A stretch of 34,380 nt of DNA. It comes from Bacteroidaceae bacterium. GTDB taxonomy: Bacteria > Bacteroidota > Bacteroidia > Bacteroidales > Bacteroidaceae. Position 1 is the first letter of the stretch, and every line of letters starts with the position of its first letter. The stretch spans positions 1 to 34,380 of the forward strand of contig JAFSWM010000096.1 of assembly GCA_017444485.1 (NCBI GenBank), in the 5' to 3' direction. Positions 2,952 through 9,886 of the stretch are shown here, piece by piece. The notes below the pieces were generated by a model. It had not been told where the DNA came from, searched no databases, and saw nothing but the letters and a program-made list of their open reading frames with translations. The translations under genes were made by a program, and so were the position numbers.

Positions 2952-3036
2952 AGGATTTCCGCCCATTCGGATGGCGCGCCCGTCTGTAAGAAAGCAAAAA
3001 GGAACTGTTTTACTTTCCACAGCCCCCGCGTTTCAT

Positions 3037-3044
3037 TACTTTTG
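3037..3044 (+). promoter_or_regulatory. Candidate -7 box directly before the epimerase start
   Basis: TACTTTTG matches TAnnTTTG exactly. It ends only four bases before the ATG at 3049, so transcription would begin at or next to the start codon, giving a message with almost no leader. Confidence 0.5.
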
Positions 3045-3048
3045 CACC

Positions 3049-4026
3049 ATGAATTTGAATGACAAGCGCATTCTCATCACGGGCGCAAGCGGCTTTATCG
3101 GTAGTTTTGTGGTAGAGGCGGCGCTCGCGGCAGGTGCGGAAGTTTGGGCAGCGGTGCGCCGCTGCTCCAATCGCGAGTATTTGCAAGACAAGCGCATACG
3201 CTTCATTGATATCAGCCTTAGCGACAAGTCACGCCTTTCTGCGGTGTTGTCAGACGCAGAGCCCTTCGATGGTGTCATCCATTGCGCTGGCGTCACCAAG
3301 GCGGCCCGTACGGAGGATTTCCAAAAAATCAATTGCGAGGGAACACGCATGCTGGCCAAAGCGCTTATGGAGACCGGCAAGTTGCGGGGCAGATTCGTAT
3401 TCCTCAGTTCCCTGTCGGTGATGGGAGAGTCAAAGTCCGAGCCGCAACCCAATAGTGCCTATGGGCGCAGTAAGTTGGCGGCAGAACAGGCTCTGGCGGC
3501 CATACCAGGGTTGGACTACGTGACACTGCGCCCCACGGGAGTCTACGGCCCACGCGAGAAGGACTATTTCCTTATGGCGAAAAGCATCGGCCAAGGCATT
3601 GATTTCGCCGTGGGCTTCAAGCCACAGGTCATCACCTTTGTTTATGTCAAAGACGTGGCCGCTGCCGCGCTACTTGCACTGTCTGAGGGCAAGAGCCGAT
3701 CGGCCTACTTCCTTACGGATGGCGGCGAGTATTCCAGCCGTGCATTCAGCGACCTGCTCCAGACGGAGATGGGTAAGCGCCGTGTGTTGCACATCACTGC
3801 GCCGCTCTGGGTGCTACGAATGGTATGCGCTGTAAACGGGTGGTTCGGCAGTTTACGAGGAAAGGCCGTGACACTGAACATGGACAAGTACCACACGTTG
3901 GCACAACGCGACTGGCGCTGCGACATCACTGCGGCCCGCCAGGAGTTGGGCTTCTCGCCCGAATACGACCTGACGCACGGCGTGAAGGAAACCGTGGCGT
4001 GGTATAAACAGTCGGGCTGGCTATGA
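3049..4026 (+). CDS. NAD(P)-dependent epimerase/dehydratase (extended SDR)
   Basis: A 325-residue extended short-chain dehydrogenase. The Rossmann motif TGASGFIGS (residues 11-19) binds the nucleotide, and the catalytic set is Ser121 region (FLSSLSVMG), Tyr138 and Lys142 (YGRSK). The VTLRPTGVYGPREKDY segment is typical of nucleotide-sugar or sterol-like epimerase/dehydratases. Substrate unknown. The start at 3049 is chosen because MNLNDKRILITG puts the nucleotide-binding strand at the usual distance; upstream in-frame codons run through the promoter. Its stop overlaps the next start (ATGA at 4023-4026), so translation of the PAP2 gene is probably coupled to it. Confidence 0.85.
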   Translation: MNLNDKRILITGASGFIGSFVVEAALAAGAEVWAAVRRCSNREYLQDKRIRFIDISLSDKSRLSAVLSDAEPFDGVIHCAGVTKAARTEDFQKINCEGTRMLAKALMETGKLRGRFVFLSSLSVMGESKSEPQPNSAYGRSKLAAEQALAAIPGLDYVTLRPTGVYGPREKDYFLMAKSIGQGIDFAVGFKPQVITFVYVKDVAAAALLALSEGKSRSAYFLTDGGEYSSRAFSDLLQTEMGKRRVLHITAPLWVLRMVCAVNGWFGSLRGKAVTLNMDKYHTLAQRDWRCDITAARQELGFSPEYDLTHGVKETVAWYKQSGWL

Positions 4027-4961
4027 AGAGACTCTTGCTGACCGATTGGGCCACGCTGATTTATGCAGCCTTCACCGCTGTCATTGTTTTGATGTGGTGG
4101 CCACGGATGGAAGCGCCATGGGCGTTGCTGAGTCTGCGCATCATTGTCGTTGCGGCAGTCTTTGCTTTGCTATATATATATAAGGTATGGCCAAATCGCC
4201 TGACGATGTTGGCACGATTGGTCTTCCCCTTGTTGATGCTGGGCGTGTGGTATCCCGACACCTTCGAGTTCTCACGCCATTTGCCCAACCTTGACCATCA
4301 CTTTGCACAGGCCGACCATACGCTGTTTGGCTGCCAACCCGCGTACGAGATGAGCCGACTCTTTACAGGAAAGGTATGGAGCGAATTGTTCAACGCGGGC
4401 TATTTCTCCTATTTTCTGATGATTGCGCTCGGCGCGCTTATCCCACTGTGCTGTAAACGCGAGGAGATGGGGCGCGCCGTATTTGTGGTCACGGCGGGAT
4501 TCTTCGCTTACTACGCCATCTACCTTTTCCTCCCCGTGGCCGGGCCGCAGTTTTATTTCACCGTCATCGACCCTGCGCTCATTCCCCACGGCCCCTACCC
4601 CTCGCTGGGAGACTATTTCAACCTGCACCCCGACACGCCGATTACAGGCAACGAAGTGCCTGGTTTCTTCCACAGCCTTGTAGAGATGGCGCACAACGGC
4701 GGCGAACGCCCTGTTGCCGCATTCCCCTCAAGCCACGTCGGAATGAGCACCGTGCTGATGATTCTGTTCTGGCAGATGAAGCGCGGCGCTTTCTTAGCCA
4801 TGCTACCGCTCTACGTTTTGCTTTGTGCCTCTACGGTATATATCGGTGCGCACTACCTCGTTGATGTGTTCGGCGGGTGGGCCACCGCACTCCTCTTCTA
4901 TGCCATTTTCAACGCTATTTATAGGAAATATGCCCCTGATGATGAAACGTATCCTCTTTAG
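4023..4961 (+). CDS. PAP2-family membrane phosphatase or lipid phosphotransferase
   Basis: A 312-residue multi-pass membrane protein with hydrophobic spans throughout. The PAP2 signature is present: FPSSHVGMST with His238, and YIGAHYLVDVFGG with His277 and Asp281, the nucleophile and charge-relay residues of the family. An upstream basic motif is less clear. Members dephosphorylate lipid phosphates or transfer head groups (the Aur1-like branch), and the length and the PVAGPQFYF stretch before the catalytic core would allow either. It overlaps the epimerase by four bases and the aminopeptidase by about 20, which suggests one transcript. Substrate is not predictable from sequence. Confidence 0.8.
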   Translation: MKRLLLTDWATLIYAAFTAVIVLMWWPRMEAPWALLSLRIIVVAAVFALLYIYKVWPNRLTMLARLVFPLLMLGVWYPDTFEFSRHLPNLDHHFAQADHTLFGCQPAYEMSRLFTGKVWSELFNAGYFSYFLMIALGALIPLCCKREEMGRAVFVVTAGFFAYYAIYLFLPVAGPQFYFTVIDPALIPHGPYPSLGDYFNLHPDTPITGNEVPGFFHSLVEMAHNGGERPVAAFPSSHVGMSTVLMILFWQMKRGAFLAMLPLYVLLCASTVYIGAHYLVDVFGGWATALLFYAIFNAIYRKYAPDDETYPL

Positions 4962-6324
4962 TCTGTTGTCGGCTCTCCCCTTGTGGGCTGCCGCACAAGG
5001 CATCTCGCCTGAGATGTTGGACAAAATCCGCACGGCCTCGCCCGTCAGTGTCAGTGACCGAGCCATCGGAAATGCCATGGCAGGCACAAGCCTCAATCAA
5101 TTGGCGCGCACCGCCGGAAACCCTGCGGCCAACGACACGCACTTTTCTCACAGCGTGCCATCGCGTGGTGTCACCGACCAGAAATCAAGCGGTCGCTGCT
5201 GGCTCTTCACTGGTCTCAACGTGATGCGGGCCAGAGCCATCAAGGAGAAAGACCTCGGCGATTTCTTCTTCTCGCAAAGTTACGTCTTCTTCTTCGACCA
5301 GTTGGAGAAGTCCAACCTCTTCCTGCAGGCCGTCATCGACAACGCTTCGAAGCCCATGAACGACCGCACAGTGGAATGGCTCTTTAAGAACCCGCTGTCG
5401 GACGGCGGCACGTTTTGCGGCGTGCAGGACCTTGTGACTAAATACGGCCTTGTACCCGCCGAGGTGATGCCTGAGCGCTACAATGCCAACAACACGTCGC
5501 GCATGTCGCAACTCTTGCAACTGAAACTGCGCGAATGGGGACTCGAACTGCGCGCCATGGTGGCGAACAAGGCCAGGGCCTCGCAACTTGAAACCCGCAA
5601 GACGGAGATGCTGGGCACAGTTTACCACATCCTCACGCTCTGCCTCGGCACGCCGCCCACAGATTTCGTTTGGACGCGTCGCACGCCCGATGGCACAGCG
5701 GTGGAGACGAAGCGCTACACCCCGCTCTCGTTCTACCAAGAGTATGTGGGCAAAGACCTCACTGACGGCTATGTGATGCTGATGAACGACCCCTCGCGGC
5801 CCTACTACAAGACCTATACCATTGAATACGACCAGCACGTCTATGACGGCCACCGATGGACGTACATCAACCTACCCATGGAGGACATCAAAGCCATGGC
5901 TGTGGCCAGCATCAAGGACAGCACGATGATGTACTTCTCGTGCGACGTGGGTAAGCAATACGACAGCGAGACGGGCGTGCTGAGCCTTGAAAACTTCGAC
6001 TACGGCGCATTGCTCGGCACCGACTTCCCGATGAACAAGGCCGACCGCATCCGCACTTTTGCCTCGGCTTCGTCGCACGCCATGACGCTGATGGCCGTGG
6101 ACCTCAACGCTGAGGGCAAGCCCGTGAAGTGGAAGGTGGAGAACAGTTGGGGCGCCACAAGCGGCAAAGCCGGCCACCTCATCATGACCGACGAGTGGTT
6201 CGATGCTTACATGTTCCGCCTCGTAGTGGAACGCCGCTTCGTCCCCGCCGAGACGCTCCGTCTGCTCGACCAAACTCCCGTTGTGCTACCCGCTTGGGAC
6301 CCGCTCTTTGCAGGAGAAGAATAA
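4942..6324 (+). CDS. C1 peptidase, aminopeptidase C / bleomycin hydrolase family, exported
   Basis: A papain-fold cysteine aminopeptidase of 460 residues. The catalytic residues are Cys86 in DQKSSGRCWLF, His379 in SSHAMTL and Asn401 in VENSWG, with the preceding Gln80 as oxyanion residue. Unlike most cytoplasmic PepC enzymes it starts with a signal-peptide-like segment (MKRILFSLLSALPLWAAAQ), as is common in Bacteroidales. The start at 4942 was chosen for that reason; ATGs at 4930 and 4939 are also in frame. The start lies inside the 3' end of the PAP2 gene. Bleomycin hydrolases usually form hexamers with the active sites facing an internal chamber. Confidence 0.88.
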   Translation: MKRILFSLLSALPLWAAAQGISPEMLDKIRTASPVSVSDRAIGNAMAGTSLNQLARTAGNPAANDTHFSHSVPSRGVTDQKSSGRCWLFTGLNVMRARAIKEKDLGDFFFSQSYVFFFDQLEKSNLFLQAVIDNASKPMNDRTVEWLFKNPLSDGGTFCGVQDLVTKYGLVPAEVMPERYNANNTSRMSQLLQLKLREWGLELRAMVANKARASQLETRKTEMLGTVYHILTLCLGTPPTDFVWTRRTPDGTAVETKRYTPLSFYQEYVGKDLTDGYVMLMNDPSRPYYKTYTIEYDQHVYDGHRWTYINLPMEDIKAMAVASIKDSTMMYFSCDVGKQYDSETGVLSLENFDYGALLGTDFPMNKADRIRTFASASSHAMTLMAVDLNAEGKPVKWKVENSWGATSGKAGHLIMTDEWFDAYMFRLVVERRFVPAETLRLLDQTPVVLPAWDPLFAGEE

Positions 6325-6408: not shown

Positions 6409-7317
6409 ATGCAACCCGTCCGTACATTTTCTGATTTGGTCAGCCGGCTCTCCTCACAAGGCCGTCGTTTGCGCGTAGCCGTAATCAACGCTGCAGACGA
6501 GAGCACTGTCACCGCGCTCTGCAAAGCCATCGACAAGGGTTTTGCTCGTGGCATCCTTGTCGGCACGCAGCCCAACGAAGCGTTAAAGGCTTGCTTATCT
6601 CCATACTCGGAACACATCACCTACCTGCCTGCCGCTGACGAGGACGAAGCGGCTCGCATGGCCGTGGAACTGGTGCGGAACGAAGAGGCGGACATCTTGA
6701 TGAAAGGCCTGCTCCACACCGACAACCTGCTGCGCGCGGTCCTCGACAAGCAGCACGGCCTGCTGCCACCTGGAAGGGTGTTGTCGCACATCACTGTGGC
6801 TGAACTTCCTGATTTTCCTCGCCTGCTTTTCATCACCGACGTGGCCGTCATCCCGCAGCCCACCGACGAGCAGCGCGAGTGGCAGGTGCGCTACATTGAT
6901 GCCCTTTGCCGCAACTTCGGAATATCCGCGCCTCGCATCGGGCTGGTGCATTTCACAGAAAAGGTGAGCCCCAAGTTCCCCCTCACGCTACACTATCGTG
7001 CGCTGGCGGAAGCCTCAGCACAGGGCGCATGGGGCGCCACCATCATAGACGGACCGCTCGATGTACGCACCTGTCTCGACCCCGAGGCCTTGCGAGCCAA
7101 AGGTATCCGCTCCCCCTTGAGGGGATATGCCGACGCGCTGGTCTTTCCCGATTTGGAGTCCGGCAACAGTTTCTATAAAACCATCACATTCTTTGCCCAT
7201 GCTACTGTGGCTGGCATTCTACAAGGCACCACCGCGCCGGTGGTGCTGACCTCACGCGGCGACGATGCGCGCAGCAAATTCCTCAGCCTCGCCACCGCAG
7301 CCATTTCCTTAAATTGA
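6409..7317 (+). CDS. ptb: Phosphate butyryltransferase (phosphate acyltransferase family)
   Basis: Interconverts butyryl-CoA (or a branched acyl-CoA) and phosphate with butyryl-phosphate and CoA. The 302-residue length and the motifs ADILMKGLLHTDNLLRAVL and HFTEKVSPKFP fit the PTB/PTA-like family, and the neighbouring butyrate kinase, four bases downstream, makes Ptb rather than phosphotransacetylase the likely identity. Together the pair would yield ATP from acyl-CoA, or make acyl-CoA from the free acid. The 84-base gap before the gene contains no clear promoter or repeat. Acyl specificity (butyrate, isobutyrate, isovalerate) is not readable from sequence. Confidence 0.88.
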   Translation: MQPVRTFSDLVSRLSSQGRRLRVAVINAADESTVTALCKAIDKGFARGILVGTQPNEALKACLSPYSEHITYLPAADEDEAARMAVELVRNEEADILMKGLLHTDNLLRAVLDKQHGLLPPGRVLSHITVAELPDFPRLLFITDVAVIPQPTDEQREWQVRYIDALCRNFGISAPRIGLVHFTEKVSPKFPLTLHYRALAEASAQGAWGATIIDGPLDVRTCLDPEALRAKGIRSPLRGYADALVFPDLESGNSFYKTITFFAHATVAGILQGTTAPVVLTSRGDDARSKFLSLATAAISLN

Positions 7318-7321
7318 CTTT

Positions 7322-9148
7322 ATGCGCATACTTGCCATCAATCCCGGAGCGAGCAGCACCAAGATAGGCGTCTATGAAGACGACAAGGCCTTGCTTGAGA
7401 AGGTTATCCTACACAGTGCCCAACAACTTTCAAGCCTGAGTGGCATGGCCGCGGCCAGGGCTTTCCGCCGCGGCTTGGTGCTTCAGGCTTTGCGTGAGGC
7501 AGGGCTCCCTCTCCGTTTTGACGCCATAATCGGGCGCGGTGGCCTGTTGCGCCCCCTGTCCGGTGGGGTGTATGAGGTGGACGAGGCGATGTGCACCGCC
7601 CTACAAAACGCCCCTCGCCAGCACCCGTGCAACCTGGGTAGCATTCTGGCCTACGAACTTTCCCAGCAATGCGGCTGTCCGGCCATGATGGCTGACCCTG
7701 GTGTGGTGACGGAAATGGACGAGGTGTCGTTCCTCAGCGGCAGCCCGCTGATACGCAGGGAGTGTTTTTGGCACGCACTGAACCAGAAAGCGGTGGCACG
7801 TCGCTATGCACGCAGCGTTGGGAAGCGGTATGAAGACCTGCGCCTCATTGTGTGTCACATGGGCAGCGGCATCAGCGTGGCTTCCCATTGTGAGGGACGC
7901 GCCATCGATGTGAACAATGCTCTTGACGGCGAGGGGTCGTTCAGCGTGGGGCGTAGCGGTTCGCTGCCCGTGCTGCCCCTTATCCGGCTGTGCTACAGCG
8001 GGCGCTTCACCGAAGCGGAGATGGAGGAGCACATCATGCGGGGCTGCGGACTACAAGGCTATCTCGGCACGAGCGATATGCGCGAGGTGATGCAGCGCGT
8101 GGAAGCAGGAGACGCTGAGGCACGCCTTGCAGTGGATGCGATGGTGTTCCAAACCTCCAAGGAAATCGCTGCCCAAAGCGCGGTGCTCAGCGGGCAGGTG
8201 GATGCCATCCTCATCACTGGCGGGTTGGCACATGTGCCTTACGTCACCGAGGGCATCACCCGTCGCGTGGGCCACATAGCCGCAGTCACCATCTATCCTG
8301 GCGAGGACGAACTTGCCGCACTCGCCAGAAACGCTCTCGCGGTGCTGGGGGGCGAGAAGGATTTGAAGCACTACACCCCTGAACCCTGGGAATTGGCGAA
8401 AGCAAACACACCGACGGAATCTGCCGCAGCAGGACATCGCACGCGCCCCGTAGTGGCTGCCATCCTGGCTGGCGGAACGGGGCTGCGACTCGGAGCAGAA
8501 AAGCCCAAGCAGTTCCTTGAAATCGCTGGAAAAACCGTTTTGGAACATGCCGTTGATGCCTTTGTGCAATGCGACGATGTGGACGAGGTGATCATTGTTT
8601 GCCACGCGGACTATGTGGAACGACTAAAAGAACAGGTGTGGCAAACACCGCGTTGGAAGAAGGTTCGCGACGTGGTCTGCGGCGGCAGCGACCGCACCGG
8701 CTCTTCTTTGCAAGCCATTCGTTGGTGCGACTCCCGCGATGTGGATTTGCTCCTGCACGATGCGGCGCGTCCCTTCGTGCCACAGCGTGTCATCAGCGAT
8801 GTGTGCCGCGCCTTGCTGACCGCTGAAGCCGTGAACGTGGTGATGCCTGCTGCCGACACAATCCTCCTCGCCACTGGTGACCACGTCACCAGCATTCCCG
8901 ACCGCTGCACGGTGCGCAGGGTGCAGACGCCGCAGGGCTTCAGGCTCGCCACGATCGCCGCTGCCTACGACAAGGCCACAAAAGACCCTGCCTTCCGCGC
9001 CACCGACGATTTCTCCGTCGTACACAAATACCTCCCCAGCGCACGCTATGCGCTCGTAGCGGGCGACGAAAACGCTCGCAAAATCACTTACCCCGCCGAC
9101 CTTTCCTATTTTAGGGCGGTTACTTGGCCGTTGAACATTGAACATTGA
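7322..9148 (+). CDS. Butyrate kinase fused to an IspD/TarI-type cytidylyltransferase
   Basis: One uninterrupted 608-residue reading frame with two enzymes. Residues 1 to about 352 form a butyrate kinase of the acetate kinase fold (MRILAINPGASSTKIGVY; CHMGSGISVA; NNALDGEGSFSVGRSG; ITGGLAH). A polar linker of about 22 residues (around PTESAAAGHRT) leads to residues 376-598, a complete CTP-dependent transferase: ILAGGTGLRLG, EKPKQF, DRTGSSLQAI, HDAARPF, VQTPQGF, TDDFSVV, ARKITYPADL. No Met occurs near the junction, so the second domain is not an independent overlooked gene. IspD makes CDP-methylerythritol for isoprenoids; TarI makes CDP-ribitol; the TDDFSVVHKYLP and KITYPADL segments leave both open. 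The final residues LNIEH and the stop come from a heptad repeat. Confidence 0.88.
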   Translation: MRILAINPGASSTKIGVYEDDKALLEKVILHSAQQLSSLSGMAAARAFRRGLVLQALREAGLPLRFDAIIGRGGLLRPLSGGVYEVDEAMCTALQNAPRQHPCNLGSILAYELSQQCGCPAMMADPGVVTEMDEVSFLSGSPLIRRECFWHALNQKAVARRYARSVGKRYEDLRLIVCHMGSGISVASHCEGRAIDVNNALDGEGSFSVGRSGSLPVLPLIRLCYSGRFTEAEMEEHIMRGCGLQGYLGTSDMREVMQRVEAGDAEARLAVDAMVFQTSKEIAAQSAVLSGQVDAILITGGLAHVPYVTEGITRRVGHIAAVTIYPGEDELAALARNALAVLGGEKDLKHYTPEPWELAKANTPTESAAAGHRTRPVVAAILAGGTGLRLGAEKPKQFLEIAGKTVLEHAVDAFVQCDDVDEVIIVCHADYVERLKEQVWQTPRWKKVRDVVCGGSDRTGSSLQAIRWCDSRDVDLLLHDAARPFVPQRVISDVCRALLTAEAVNVVMPAADTILLATGDHVTSIPDRCTVRRVQTPQGFRLATIAAAYDKATKDPAFRATDDFSVVHKYLPSARYALVAGDENARKITYPADLSYFRAVTWPLNIEH

Positions 9149-9225
9149 ACATTGAACATTACTAATACCTTTGCTCTCGGTTTTGCAAAAATGGTCAATG
9201 GCCAATCATCAATGGTCAATGAAAA
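9131..9225 (+). repeat. Heptad repeat and 81-bp promoter-bearing element, copy upstream of hpt
   Basis: Four TTGAACA heptads (9131-9158), a unique core containing TAATACCTTTGCTCTCGG, then TGGTCAA-type heptads to TGAAAA at 9225. The segment 9145-9225 matches 16186-16266 at 80 of 81 positions. The two heptad arms are nearly complementary, so the element is also an imperfect inverted repeat. The Buk fusion ends inside the left arm. Confidence 0.85.
9145..9173 (+). promoter_or_regulatory. Repeat-borne promoter upstream of hpt
   Basis: TACCTTTG (9166-9173) matches the -7 consensus TAnnTTTG, and a TTG supplied by a heptad at 9145 lies 21 bases before it, a spacing close to that of Bacteroidota -33/-7 pairs. 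The identical arrangement occurs at 16186-16214. Confidence 0.5.
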
Positions 9226-9230
9226 GAATG

Positions 9231-9238
9231 TACCTTTG
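9231..9238 (+). promoter_or_regulatory. Second candidate -7 box for hpt
   Basis: A second TACCTTTG, 28 bases before the hpt start and outside the 81-bp repeat. If used, the transcript would begin downstream of the repeat ATGs, which supports the hpt start at 9266. Confidence 0.45.
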
Positions 9239-9265
9239 CACGTCCAAATCCCACATGCAATCATC

Positions 9266-9799
9266 ATGGAAACAGTAAGAATTCTCGACCGCGACTTCAA
9301 GATCTACCTTCGCGAGGCCGACATCCAAAAGCGCATCAGCGAAACGGCAGCACAAATCAGCCGAGACCTGGAAGGGAAAAATCCCCTGCTGCTCGGCGTG
9401 CTGAACGGAGCCTTTATGTTTGCCGCCGACCTACTGCGCGCCCTGACCATCCCTGCCGAAATCTCATTTATCAAAGTGGCGAGTTACGAGGGCACGGCAT
9501 CAACGGGCACCGTGTCGCAACTCATTGGACTGAATGAGAGCCTGGAAGGGCGCACCGTGGTCATCGTCGAAGACATCATTGACTCTGGTCTCTCCATGAC
9601 CAACCTCATCGAAGAGGTGAAGAAGCACAATCCCGCAGAGATACGTATCTGCACACTGCTACTCAAGCCCGGCAATCTGCAAGTGGACCTCGACGTGCCC
9701 TACTGCTGTTTCCGCATTCCCAACGATTTCATTGTGGGCTATGGTTTGGACTACGACCGCTACGGACGTGGGCTGCGCGACATCTATTCAGTTTTATGA
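9266..9799 (+). CDS. hpt: Hypoxanthine phosphoribosyltransferase
   Basis: Salvages hypoxanthine and guanine with PRPP to IMP and GMP. The PRPP motif is VVIVEDIIDSGLSM, and FIKVASYEG and DFIVGYGLDYD are the usual type I purine phosphoribosyltransferase segments. With the start at METVRILDRDFKIYL the protein has 177 residues, the normal size. The reading frame stays open upstream through the heptad repeat and would add MVNEKN and more, but a promoter box at 9231-9238 lies between, so the shorter form is preferred. First gene of the conserved hpt-adk-obg-pgeF series. Confidence 0.93.
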   Translation: METVRILDRDFKIYLREADIQKRISETAAQISRDLEGKNPLLLGVLNGAFMFAADLLRALTIPAEISFIKVASYEGTASTGTVSQLIGLNESLEGRTVVIVEDIIDSGLSMTNLIEEVKKHNPAEIRICTLLLKPGNLQVDLDVPYCCFRIPNDFIVGYGLDYDRYGRGLRDIYSVL

Positions 9800-9809
9800 G
9801 GTTTCTTCA

Positions 9810-9886
9810 TTGAACATTGACTATTGACCATTGACCATTAGCAAAACCCATTGCAGCCGGTATTGACAATGGTCAATGGTCAATGA
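9810..9886. repeat. Heptad inverted repeat between hpt and adk
   Basis: TTGAACA/TTGACCA heptads lead into a 17-base arm (9823-9839), followed by a 28-base loop and a perfectly complementary arm (9868-9884). Unlike the copies at 9.1 and 16.2 kb the core here lacks TACCTTTG. In RNA this would fold as a long AU-rich hairpin between the two cistrons, without a following U-tract. Confidence 0.8.

What the first reader, a model, noticed from the sequence alone, without database searches (positions are those of the whole stretch)
7322..9148. Butyrate kinase fused in frame to an IspD/TarI-type cytidylyltransferase
Seen: one frame of 608 codons with complete motif sets for both enzymes, a linker of about 22 residues and no Met at the junction. 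Known: the two families belong to unrelated pathways (acyl-phosphate energy metabolism; isoprenoid or polyol-phosphate nucleotide activation), and I know of no described Buk-IspD or Buk-TarI enzyme. Inference: either a recent gene fusion, or a deliberate coupling, for example of ATP made by the kinase half to nucleotide-dependent chemistry. If the genome has no other ispD, this half may be essential.
Basis: partly seen in the sequence, partly recalled or inferred. Interest (0 to 1): 0.72.

Follow-up and report, generated by a model that had tools for sequence, protein, structure and literature searches.

The report
Butyrate kinase fused to sole IspD
In a few gut Bacteroidales species a butyrate-fermentation enzyme and an enzyme of the isoprenoid pathway type are joined in one protein; the join is real and looks like two working enzymes on a string, and the second half seems to be the only copy the cell has.

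Summary
The fusion is real. Window 7322-9148 is one frame of 608 codons: butyrate kinase (residues 1-352), a free linker (353-374) and an IspD-type cytidylyltransferase (377-596). The same protein occurs full length in two other species' assemblies (71% identity); a fourth relative has the kinase half cut by a contig end. Samples of the order and phylum listed no other. The IspD halves form one clade (100/100). Both halves keep nearly all invariant residues and show purifying selection; the linker does not. No start codon is conserved at the junction. The genome shows no other butyrate kinase of this family and no other IspD match, while IspF and Dxr are present, so the IspD half is the best candidate for the MEP-pathway step; sequence models alone do not settle its substrate. 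Gene order suggests that a ptb-buk pair came to lie just upstream of ispD(-licD) and the genes joined. Best reading: two independent enzymes, tethered and co-expressed, without evidence of coupling. Of wider interest: in sister species the same divergent IspD family is fused to LicD, to an SDR reductase or to an unnamed protein, in some near-complete genomes as the only strong IspD match. No structure model.

The parts
7322..9148 (+). fused gene, butyrate kinase - IspD-type cytidylyltransferase, 608 aa
7322..8377 (+). butyrate kinase half (residues 1-352)
   Evidence: TIGR02707 429.2 bits, cut-off 289.1; best solved relatives 1x9j and 1saz, E 7e-97
8378..8443 (+). linker (residues 353-374), unconserved after PEPWE
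8450..9109 (+). IspD-type domain (residues 377-596), the one PF01128 match in the genome
6409..7317 (+). ptb, phosphate butyryltransferase-like, directly upstream (4 bases between the genes)
   Evidence: PF01515 124.5 bits over 24; TIGR02706 229.6, below its 410.5 cut-off
4825..6324 (+). C1-like peptidase; its relative lies next to ispD in G006
   Evidence: 71% identity to the G006 peptidase (PF03051)
4023..4961 (+). PAP2-family protein, same order in G006
2971..4026 (+). NAD-dependent epimerase, same order in G006
9131..9160 (.). TTGAACA heptamer array (4.3 copies) that holds the fused gene's stop codon
9266..9799 (+). hpt-like phosphoribosyltransferase (first ATG of the ORF 9152-9799), where licD stands in G018 and G035

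Best explanation
It is a fixed gene fusion of two complete enzymes that arose once, in the ancestor of a small clade of one Bacteroidales genus. A ptb-buk pair came to lie directly upstream of ispD, in front of licD; buk lost its stop, ispD lost its start, and the former gap became a flexible linker. The protein works as two independent enzymes on one chain. The Buk half, with Ptb from the gene upstream, turns acyl-phosphate and ADP into acid and ATP. The IspD half joins CTP and 2-C-methyl-erythritol 4-phosphate to CDP-methylerythritol for isoprenoid synthesis, as the cell's only such enzyme. The gain, if any, is shared expression. Shown: the frame, both complete domains, the conservation, single copies in a 94.8% complete genome, present gene order, single clade of the IspD halves. 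Inferred: the order of events, both activities, the substrate of the IspD half, essentiality, no coupling.
For: Complete frame and domains. Same fusion in G018 and G035, 71% identity. Fused IspD halves form one clade, 100/100; fused Buk plus G067 form one clade, 100/99. 53 of 54 columns invariant in 34 unfused Buk rows, and 41 of 42 columns invariant in at least 42 of 43 unfused IspD rows, are kept in all three. dN/dS 0.05-0.16 (Buk) and 0.09-0.33 (IspD) with dS 1.0-3.6, so rough; linker 6-9 of 20 residues alike. One PF01128 match in G000. Dxr and IspF in G000, G018 and in 19 of 19 near-complete genus genomes. Order in G006: epimerase-PAP2-peptidase-ispD-licD; window: epimerase-PAP2-peptidase-ptb-buk/ispD; G018 and G035: ptb-buk/ispD-licD. 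In the near relative G004 (one contig, 99% complete) buk and ispD lie about 67 kb apart.
Against: No assay, expression data, reads or structure model. The window's IspD half scores below NCBIfam's ispD cut-off (173.5 of 181.3) and far below the equivalog NF001186 (132.2 of 253); its two best solved relatives are 2vsh (deposited as IspD, recalled to be a TarI) and 4jis (ribitol-5-phosphate enzyme). The genome is 94.8% complete, so a second IspD could be missing. Dxr was not found in G035 (83% complete), one of the three fused genomes. In the Buk tree the three fused rows are not a clade without G067, whose fusion state is unknown; the IspD tree does not resolve the sister of the fused clade (63/42). 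Only the window shares G006's upstream block; G018 and G067 have the c3 gene before ptb instead.
Confidence: 0.68

Rival explanations
1. The IspD half is a polyol-phosphate (TarI-like) cytidylyltransferase that feeds a CDP-polyol to LicD for surface glycans, not the MEP enzyme; the MEP enzyme is missing from the assembly or too divergent for PF01128.
For: LicD directly downstream of the fusion in G018 (ATGA overlap) and G035; fusions to LicD or SDR in sister species; among the best solved relatives is a ribitol-5-phosphate enzyme, 4jis.
Against: 15 of 19 near-complete genus genomes have one strong PF01128 match, of this family, together with Dxr and IspF: the MEP enzyme would have to be missed in all of them. 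The ribitol model NF001183 is not reached: 143.4, 158.2 and 145.3 of 166 in the three fused halves. In the window genome the linked licD is gone (its two LicD matches are 34% and 28% identical to G018's), yet the half is kept.
Confidence: 0.17
2. Functional coupling: the fusion ties ATP yield or acyl-phosphate level of fermentation to isoprenoid output by channelling or regulation between the halves.
For: The fusion was kept over a divergence of 29% in protein sequence, with both halves under constraint.
Against: No shared metabolite (established biochemistry); linker length and sequence vary; no other genome listed with the fusion in the order and phylum samples (392 and 394 others); gene order offers a simple accident.
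Confidence: 0.07
3. Two proteins in practice: an internal start or cleavage in the linker releases IspD.
For: In-frame GTG at residue 378 in the window and at 375 in G035; an exposed linker could be cut.
Against: G018 has no ATG, GTG or TTG between residues 349 and 397, its IspD core starting there. No TANNTTTG box on the + strand between 3110 and 9165; this is weak, since the full two-box pattern matched nowhere in the window.
Confidence: 0.06

Closest known systems
IspDF bifunctional enzymes
   Same: IspD covalently joined to another enzyme, with activity comparable to the single enzymes (passage in PMC11770629)
   Different: partner there is IspF of the same pathway; here butyrate kinase, and IspF is a separate gene on another contig
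Bacterial IspD/TarI-LicD and IspD/TarI-reductase fusions
   Same: same cytidylyltransferase family; both kinds are mentioned in PMC4873967 (passages) and were found here in the window's genus
   Different: there the partner is thought to use the product or make the substrate; Buk does neither
Ptb-Buk pair of butyrate fermenters; butyrate kinase 2 (1saz, 1x9j)
   Same: ptb directly upstream, full Buk domain
   Different: IspD domain attached; the listed Buk frames of the order are about 350-415 aa, save G384, whose 598 was not borne out by the fetched stretch

Membership tests
Butyrate kinase (TIGR02707) | score over the curated cut-off, whole length | tested here: met
   429.2 vs 289.1 bits, profile 1-350 of 351
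Butyrate kinase (TIGR02707) | invariant residues of unfused Buks kept | tested here: met
   53 of 54 columns; D to T at residue 130 in all three fused
Butyrate kinase (TIGR02707) | acyl-phosphate:ADP phosphotransfer activity | not testable with these tools
   needs assay
IspD, MEP cytidylyltransferase | NCBIfam TIGR00453 cut-off | tested here: inconclusive
   window 173.5, G018 184.2 and G035 183.8 vs 181.3
IspD, MEP cytidylyltransferase | NCBIfam equivalog NF001186 cut-off | tested here: not met
   132.2 vs 253; of ten genus rows scanned only G034 passes (275.2)
IspD, MEP cytidylyltransferase | rest of MEP pathway present (Dxr, IspF tested), no other IspD | tested here: met
   Dxr, IspF and one PF01128 match in G000; other MEP genes not searched
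IspD, MEP cytidylyltransferase | E. coli active-site residues R20, K27, R85, S88, D106, R109, T140, R157, T165, T189, K213 (roles recalled) | tested here: met
   all kept in the three fused rows; not discriminating: by eye all are also kept in 2vsh, and 8 of 11 in the ribitol-type copy of G080
IspD, MEP cytidylyltransferase | CTP:MEP cytidylyltransfer activity | not testable with these tools
   needs assay
TarI, ribitol-5-phosphate cytidylyltransferase (NF001183) | curated cut-off | tested here: not met
   143.4 window, 158.2 G018, 145.3 G035 vs 166
IspDF | IspF domain in the same chain | tested here: not met
   no IspF domain among the Pfam matches; IspF on contig C79

The most novel reading that the evidence does not exclude
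In this genus one divergent IspD serves two pathways: it makes CDP-methylerythritol for isoprenoids and also the CDP-activated alcohol that LicD puts on surface glycans (CDP-ribitol, or CDP-methylerythritol itself, so that methylerythritol phosphate would be a surface decoration). Its tie to LicD, SDR and other genes made it a fusion hub, and the Buk fusion is one branch of that.
Probability: 0.2. Interest if true: 0.7.

Novelty: new variant of a known kind. Interest (0 to 1): 0.42.

Why it matters
It adds a domain pair that three searches of the held papers did not find and a clear case of how neighbours can fuse and trap an enzyme that the cell probably cannot lose inside a fermentation protein. 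More useful is the context: an IspD family that is the only strong match in several near-complete MEP-bearing genomes yet is fused to LicD or SDR, which are usually read as signs of CDP-ribitol synthesis. That makes the substrate range of IspD in Bacteroidales directly testable and warns against naming such proteins by fusion partner alone.

Tried and rejected
Assembly artefact: rejected, three assemblies of three species. Internal promoter or conserved restart for ispD: none found, weak evidence. A fusion in G384 (reported frame of 598 aa): in the fetched stretch the buk frame is 353 aa with a stop just before it, so not a fusion; the difference from the tool's frame length was not resolved. 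The LicD label that I first gave G072 in the quick tree was wrong: its IspD is joined to the unnamed c3 protein; corrected. Residue checks against E. coli do not tell MEP from ribitol substrates. The c3 protein: no Pfam or NCBIfam match, best PDB match E 0.44. A paper search on butyrate kinase in Bacteroidetes and Prevotella held 51 papers, 20 listed, seen as a listing only.

Limits of the counts. Careful IspD tree: 46 of 53 rows; dropped were E. coli, four second copies, G034 and G011 as long or cut rows. These 46 rows do not include G027, G069 and G078, whose IspD frames also hold a LicD match but were not fetched. Buk rows: 38 genomes, not every genome with a Buk. Order, family and phylum searches scored at most three candidates per genome and listed matches only up to E 1e-45, 1e-110 and 1e-105, the order list being cut; a distant fusion with a low score could be missed. 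Genomes overlap between these calls.

Full report
What is there. The window holds one + strand frame, 7322-9148, 608 codons from ATG to TGA, without a stop inside. Residues 1-352 are a full butyrate kinase (TIGR02707 429.2 bits, cut-off 289.1; best solved relatives 1x9j and 1saz, E 7e-97) and residues 377-596 a full IspD-type cytidylyltransferase (PF01128 159.7 bits, cut-off 27). Between them lie about 22 residues without Met. The gene directly upstream, 6409-7317, is ptb-like (PF01515 124.5 bits; TIGR02706 229.6, below its own cut-off of 410.5).

Is it real. A search of the genus (58 genomes with the window's own) found the full-length fusion in three: G000, G018 (73% in the match) and G035 (71%); over the alignment both are 71% identical to the window protein. 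G067 has a Buk of 79% identity cut by the contig end at residue 330, so its state is unknown. Elsewhere no full-length match was listed among 392 other order genomes and 394 other phylum genomes, and in the family sample of 398 others only G018 and G035. These searches score up to three candidates per genome and list only strong matches. No reads were seen.

Both halves are kept. Of 54 columns invariant in 34 unfused Buk rows, the three fused proteins keep 53; the exception is D to T at residue 130 in all three. Of 42 columns invariant in at least 42 of 43 unfused IspD rows they keep 41; the exception is C to F at residue 564 in all three. Nei-Gojobori dN/dS is 0.05-0.16 for Buk and 0.09-0.33 for IspD; dS is 1.0-3.6, so these are rough. 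Linker residues agree in only 6-9 of 20. Constraint on both sides and little on the linker is what two working domains on a string would show.

One origin. In a careful tree of 46 IspD rows the three fused halves form one clade, 100/100; its sister is not resolved (63/42). In the Buk tree of 38 rows the fused three together with G067 form one clade, 100/99. G067 lies inside it (93/84), so the fused three alone are not a clade there; this fits G067 being fused too but does not show it. The nearest outside rows are G012 and G004 (99/97). In G004, a single contig of 2.9 Mb at 99% completeness, Buk is at 1.673 Mb and IspD at 1.741 Mb.

How it may have arisen. G006 has epimerase - PAP2 - C1 peptidase - ispD - licD. 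The window has epimerase - PAP2 - C1 peptidase - ptb - buk/ispD - hpt. G018 has c3 - ptb - buk/ispD - licD, G035 ptb - buk/ispD - licD, G067 c3 - ptb - buk (cut). So ptb-buk came to lie straight before ispD and the gene ends joined; which block moved is not shown, and the upstream neighbours differ among the fused genomes. In G018 the stop of the fusion and the licD start share ATGA. In the window licD is replaced by hpt; the genome's two LicD matches lie on C52 and are only 34% and 28% identical to G018's.

What the IspD half does. G000 has one PF01128 match at E up to 0.001 and, besides the fused kinase, an acetate kinase on C108. IspF is found in 48 of 58 and Dxr in 52 of 58 genus genomes, both in 19 of 19 near-complete ones, G000 and G018 among them; G035 (83% complete) has IspF but no Dxr match. 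In 15 of those 19 there is one strong PF01128 match, and in all 19 the divergent family is present; G080, G075, G014 and G016 have a second strong match. So the fused half is the best candidate for the MEP step. Sequence alone does not settle it: the window half misses the TIGR00453 cut-off (173.5 of 181.3) while the G018 and G035 halves pass (184.2, 183.8), the ribitol model NF001183 is missed by all three, the strict equivalog NF001186 is missed by far in all three, and the best solved relatives are 2vsh (deposited as IspD, recalled to be a pneumococcal TarI), 4jis (ribitol-5-phosphate enzyme) and then 2xwn (IspD). That the half is conserved in the window genome although its licD is gone speaks for a duty beyond LicD.

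Context. Of 46 IspD rows of the genus, 13 are joined in frame to LicD, 10 to an SDR reductase, 1 to an unnamed 338-aa family (c3), 3 to Buk, 18 stand alone and 1 is cut (partners). In G061 and G076 the only strong IspD match is the LicD fusion, in G081 and G031 the SDR fusion, all four with IspF and Dxr. PMC4873967 (passages) notes that bacterial ISPD homologues are found fused with LicD proteins and with reductases and reads this as CDP-ribitol chemistry. If the same chain also makes CDP-methylerythritol, one active site serves two pathways, or LicD takes CDP-methylerythritol. This is the most novel reading open, and testable.

Mechanism and verdict. The two halves share no metabolite: Buk uses acyl-phosphate and ADP, IspD uses CTP and MEP (established biochemistry). 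No + strand TANNTTTG box lies between 3110 and 9165, so ispD may depend on the same transcript as ptb-buk; the full two-box pattern matched nowhere in the window, so this is weak. The best reading is a fixed, neutral or mildly useful fusion of neighbours. In print: no paper in the held library has butyrate kinase with IspD and fusion, with erythritol 4-phosphate cytidylyltransferase and fused, or with cytidylyltransferase, bifunctional and fusion protein; five papers with butyrate kinase and gene fusion were seen in the listing only. IspDF is the known precedent of an IspD fusion across non-consecutive steps (PMC11770629, passages).

Noticed in passing
window 9131-9160, 9190-9221, 9808-9839, 9867-9885: Four arrays of 7-base units (TTGAACA, AATGGTC, CATTGAC, CAATGGT) around hpt; the first holds the stop codon of the fused gene.
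   Followed up: partly
L079 2357-4096 (G072); L034 2031-3017; L105 2050-3036; L085 1218-2213: Unnamed family c3 of about 338 aa beside ispD-licD or ptb, once fused to IspD; no Pfam or NCBIfam match.
   Followed up: partly
L109 1193-3007; also L068, L083, L105, L119-L121: A nucleotidyltransferase joined to an aminotransferase/CobD-like domain (about 604 aa), mostly near licD, perhaps making another CDP-activated head group.
   Followed up: no
L123 2943-3644 (G080): Second IspD-family gene that passes the ribitol-5-phosphate model NF001183 (179.4 vs 166), beside an epimerase and a polysaccharide biosynthesis protein.
   Followed up: partly
L126 3123-3755 (G034): Of the ten genus rows scanned, the only one that passes the canonical IspD equivalog (275.2 vs 253); its Buk is also distant (42%), so G034 may be misplaced in the genus.
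   Followed up: no
window 9166-9173, 9231-9238 (+): Two TACCTTTG boxes (Bacteroidetes -7 type, recalled) upstream of hpt; TANNTTTG is over-represented in the window, 22 vs 10 expected.
   Followed up: no
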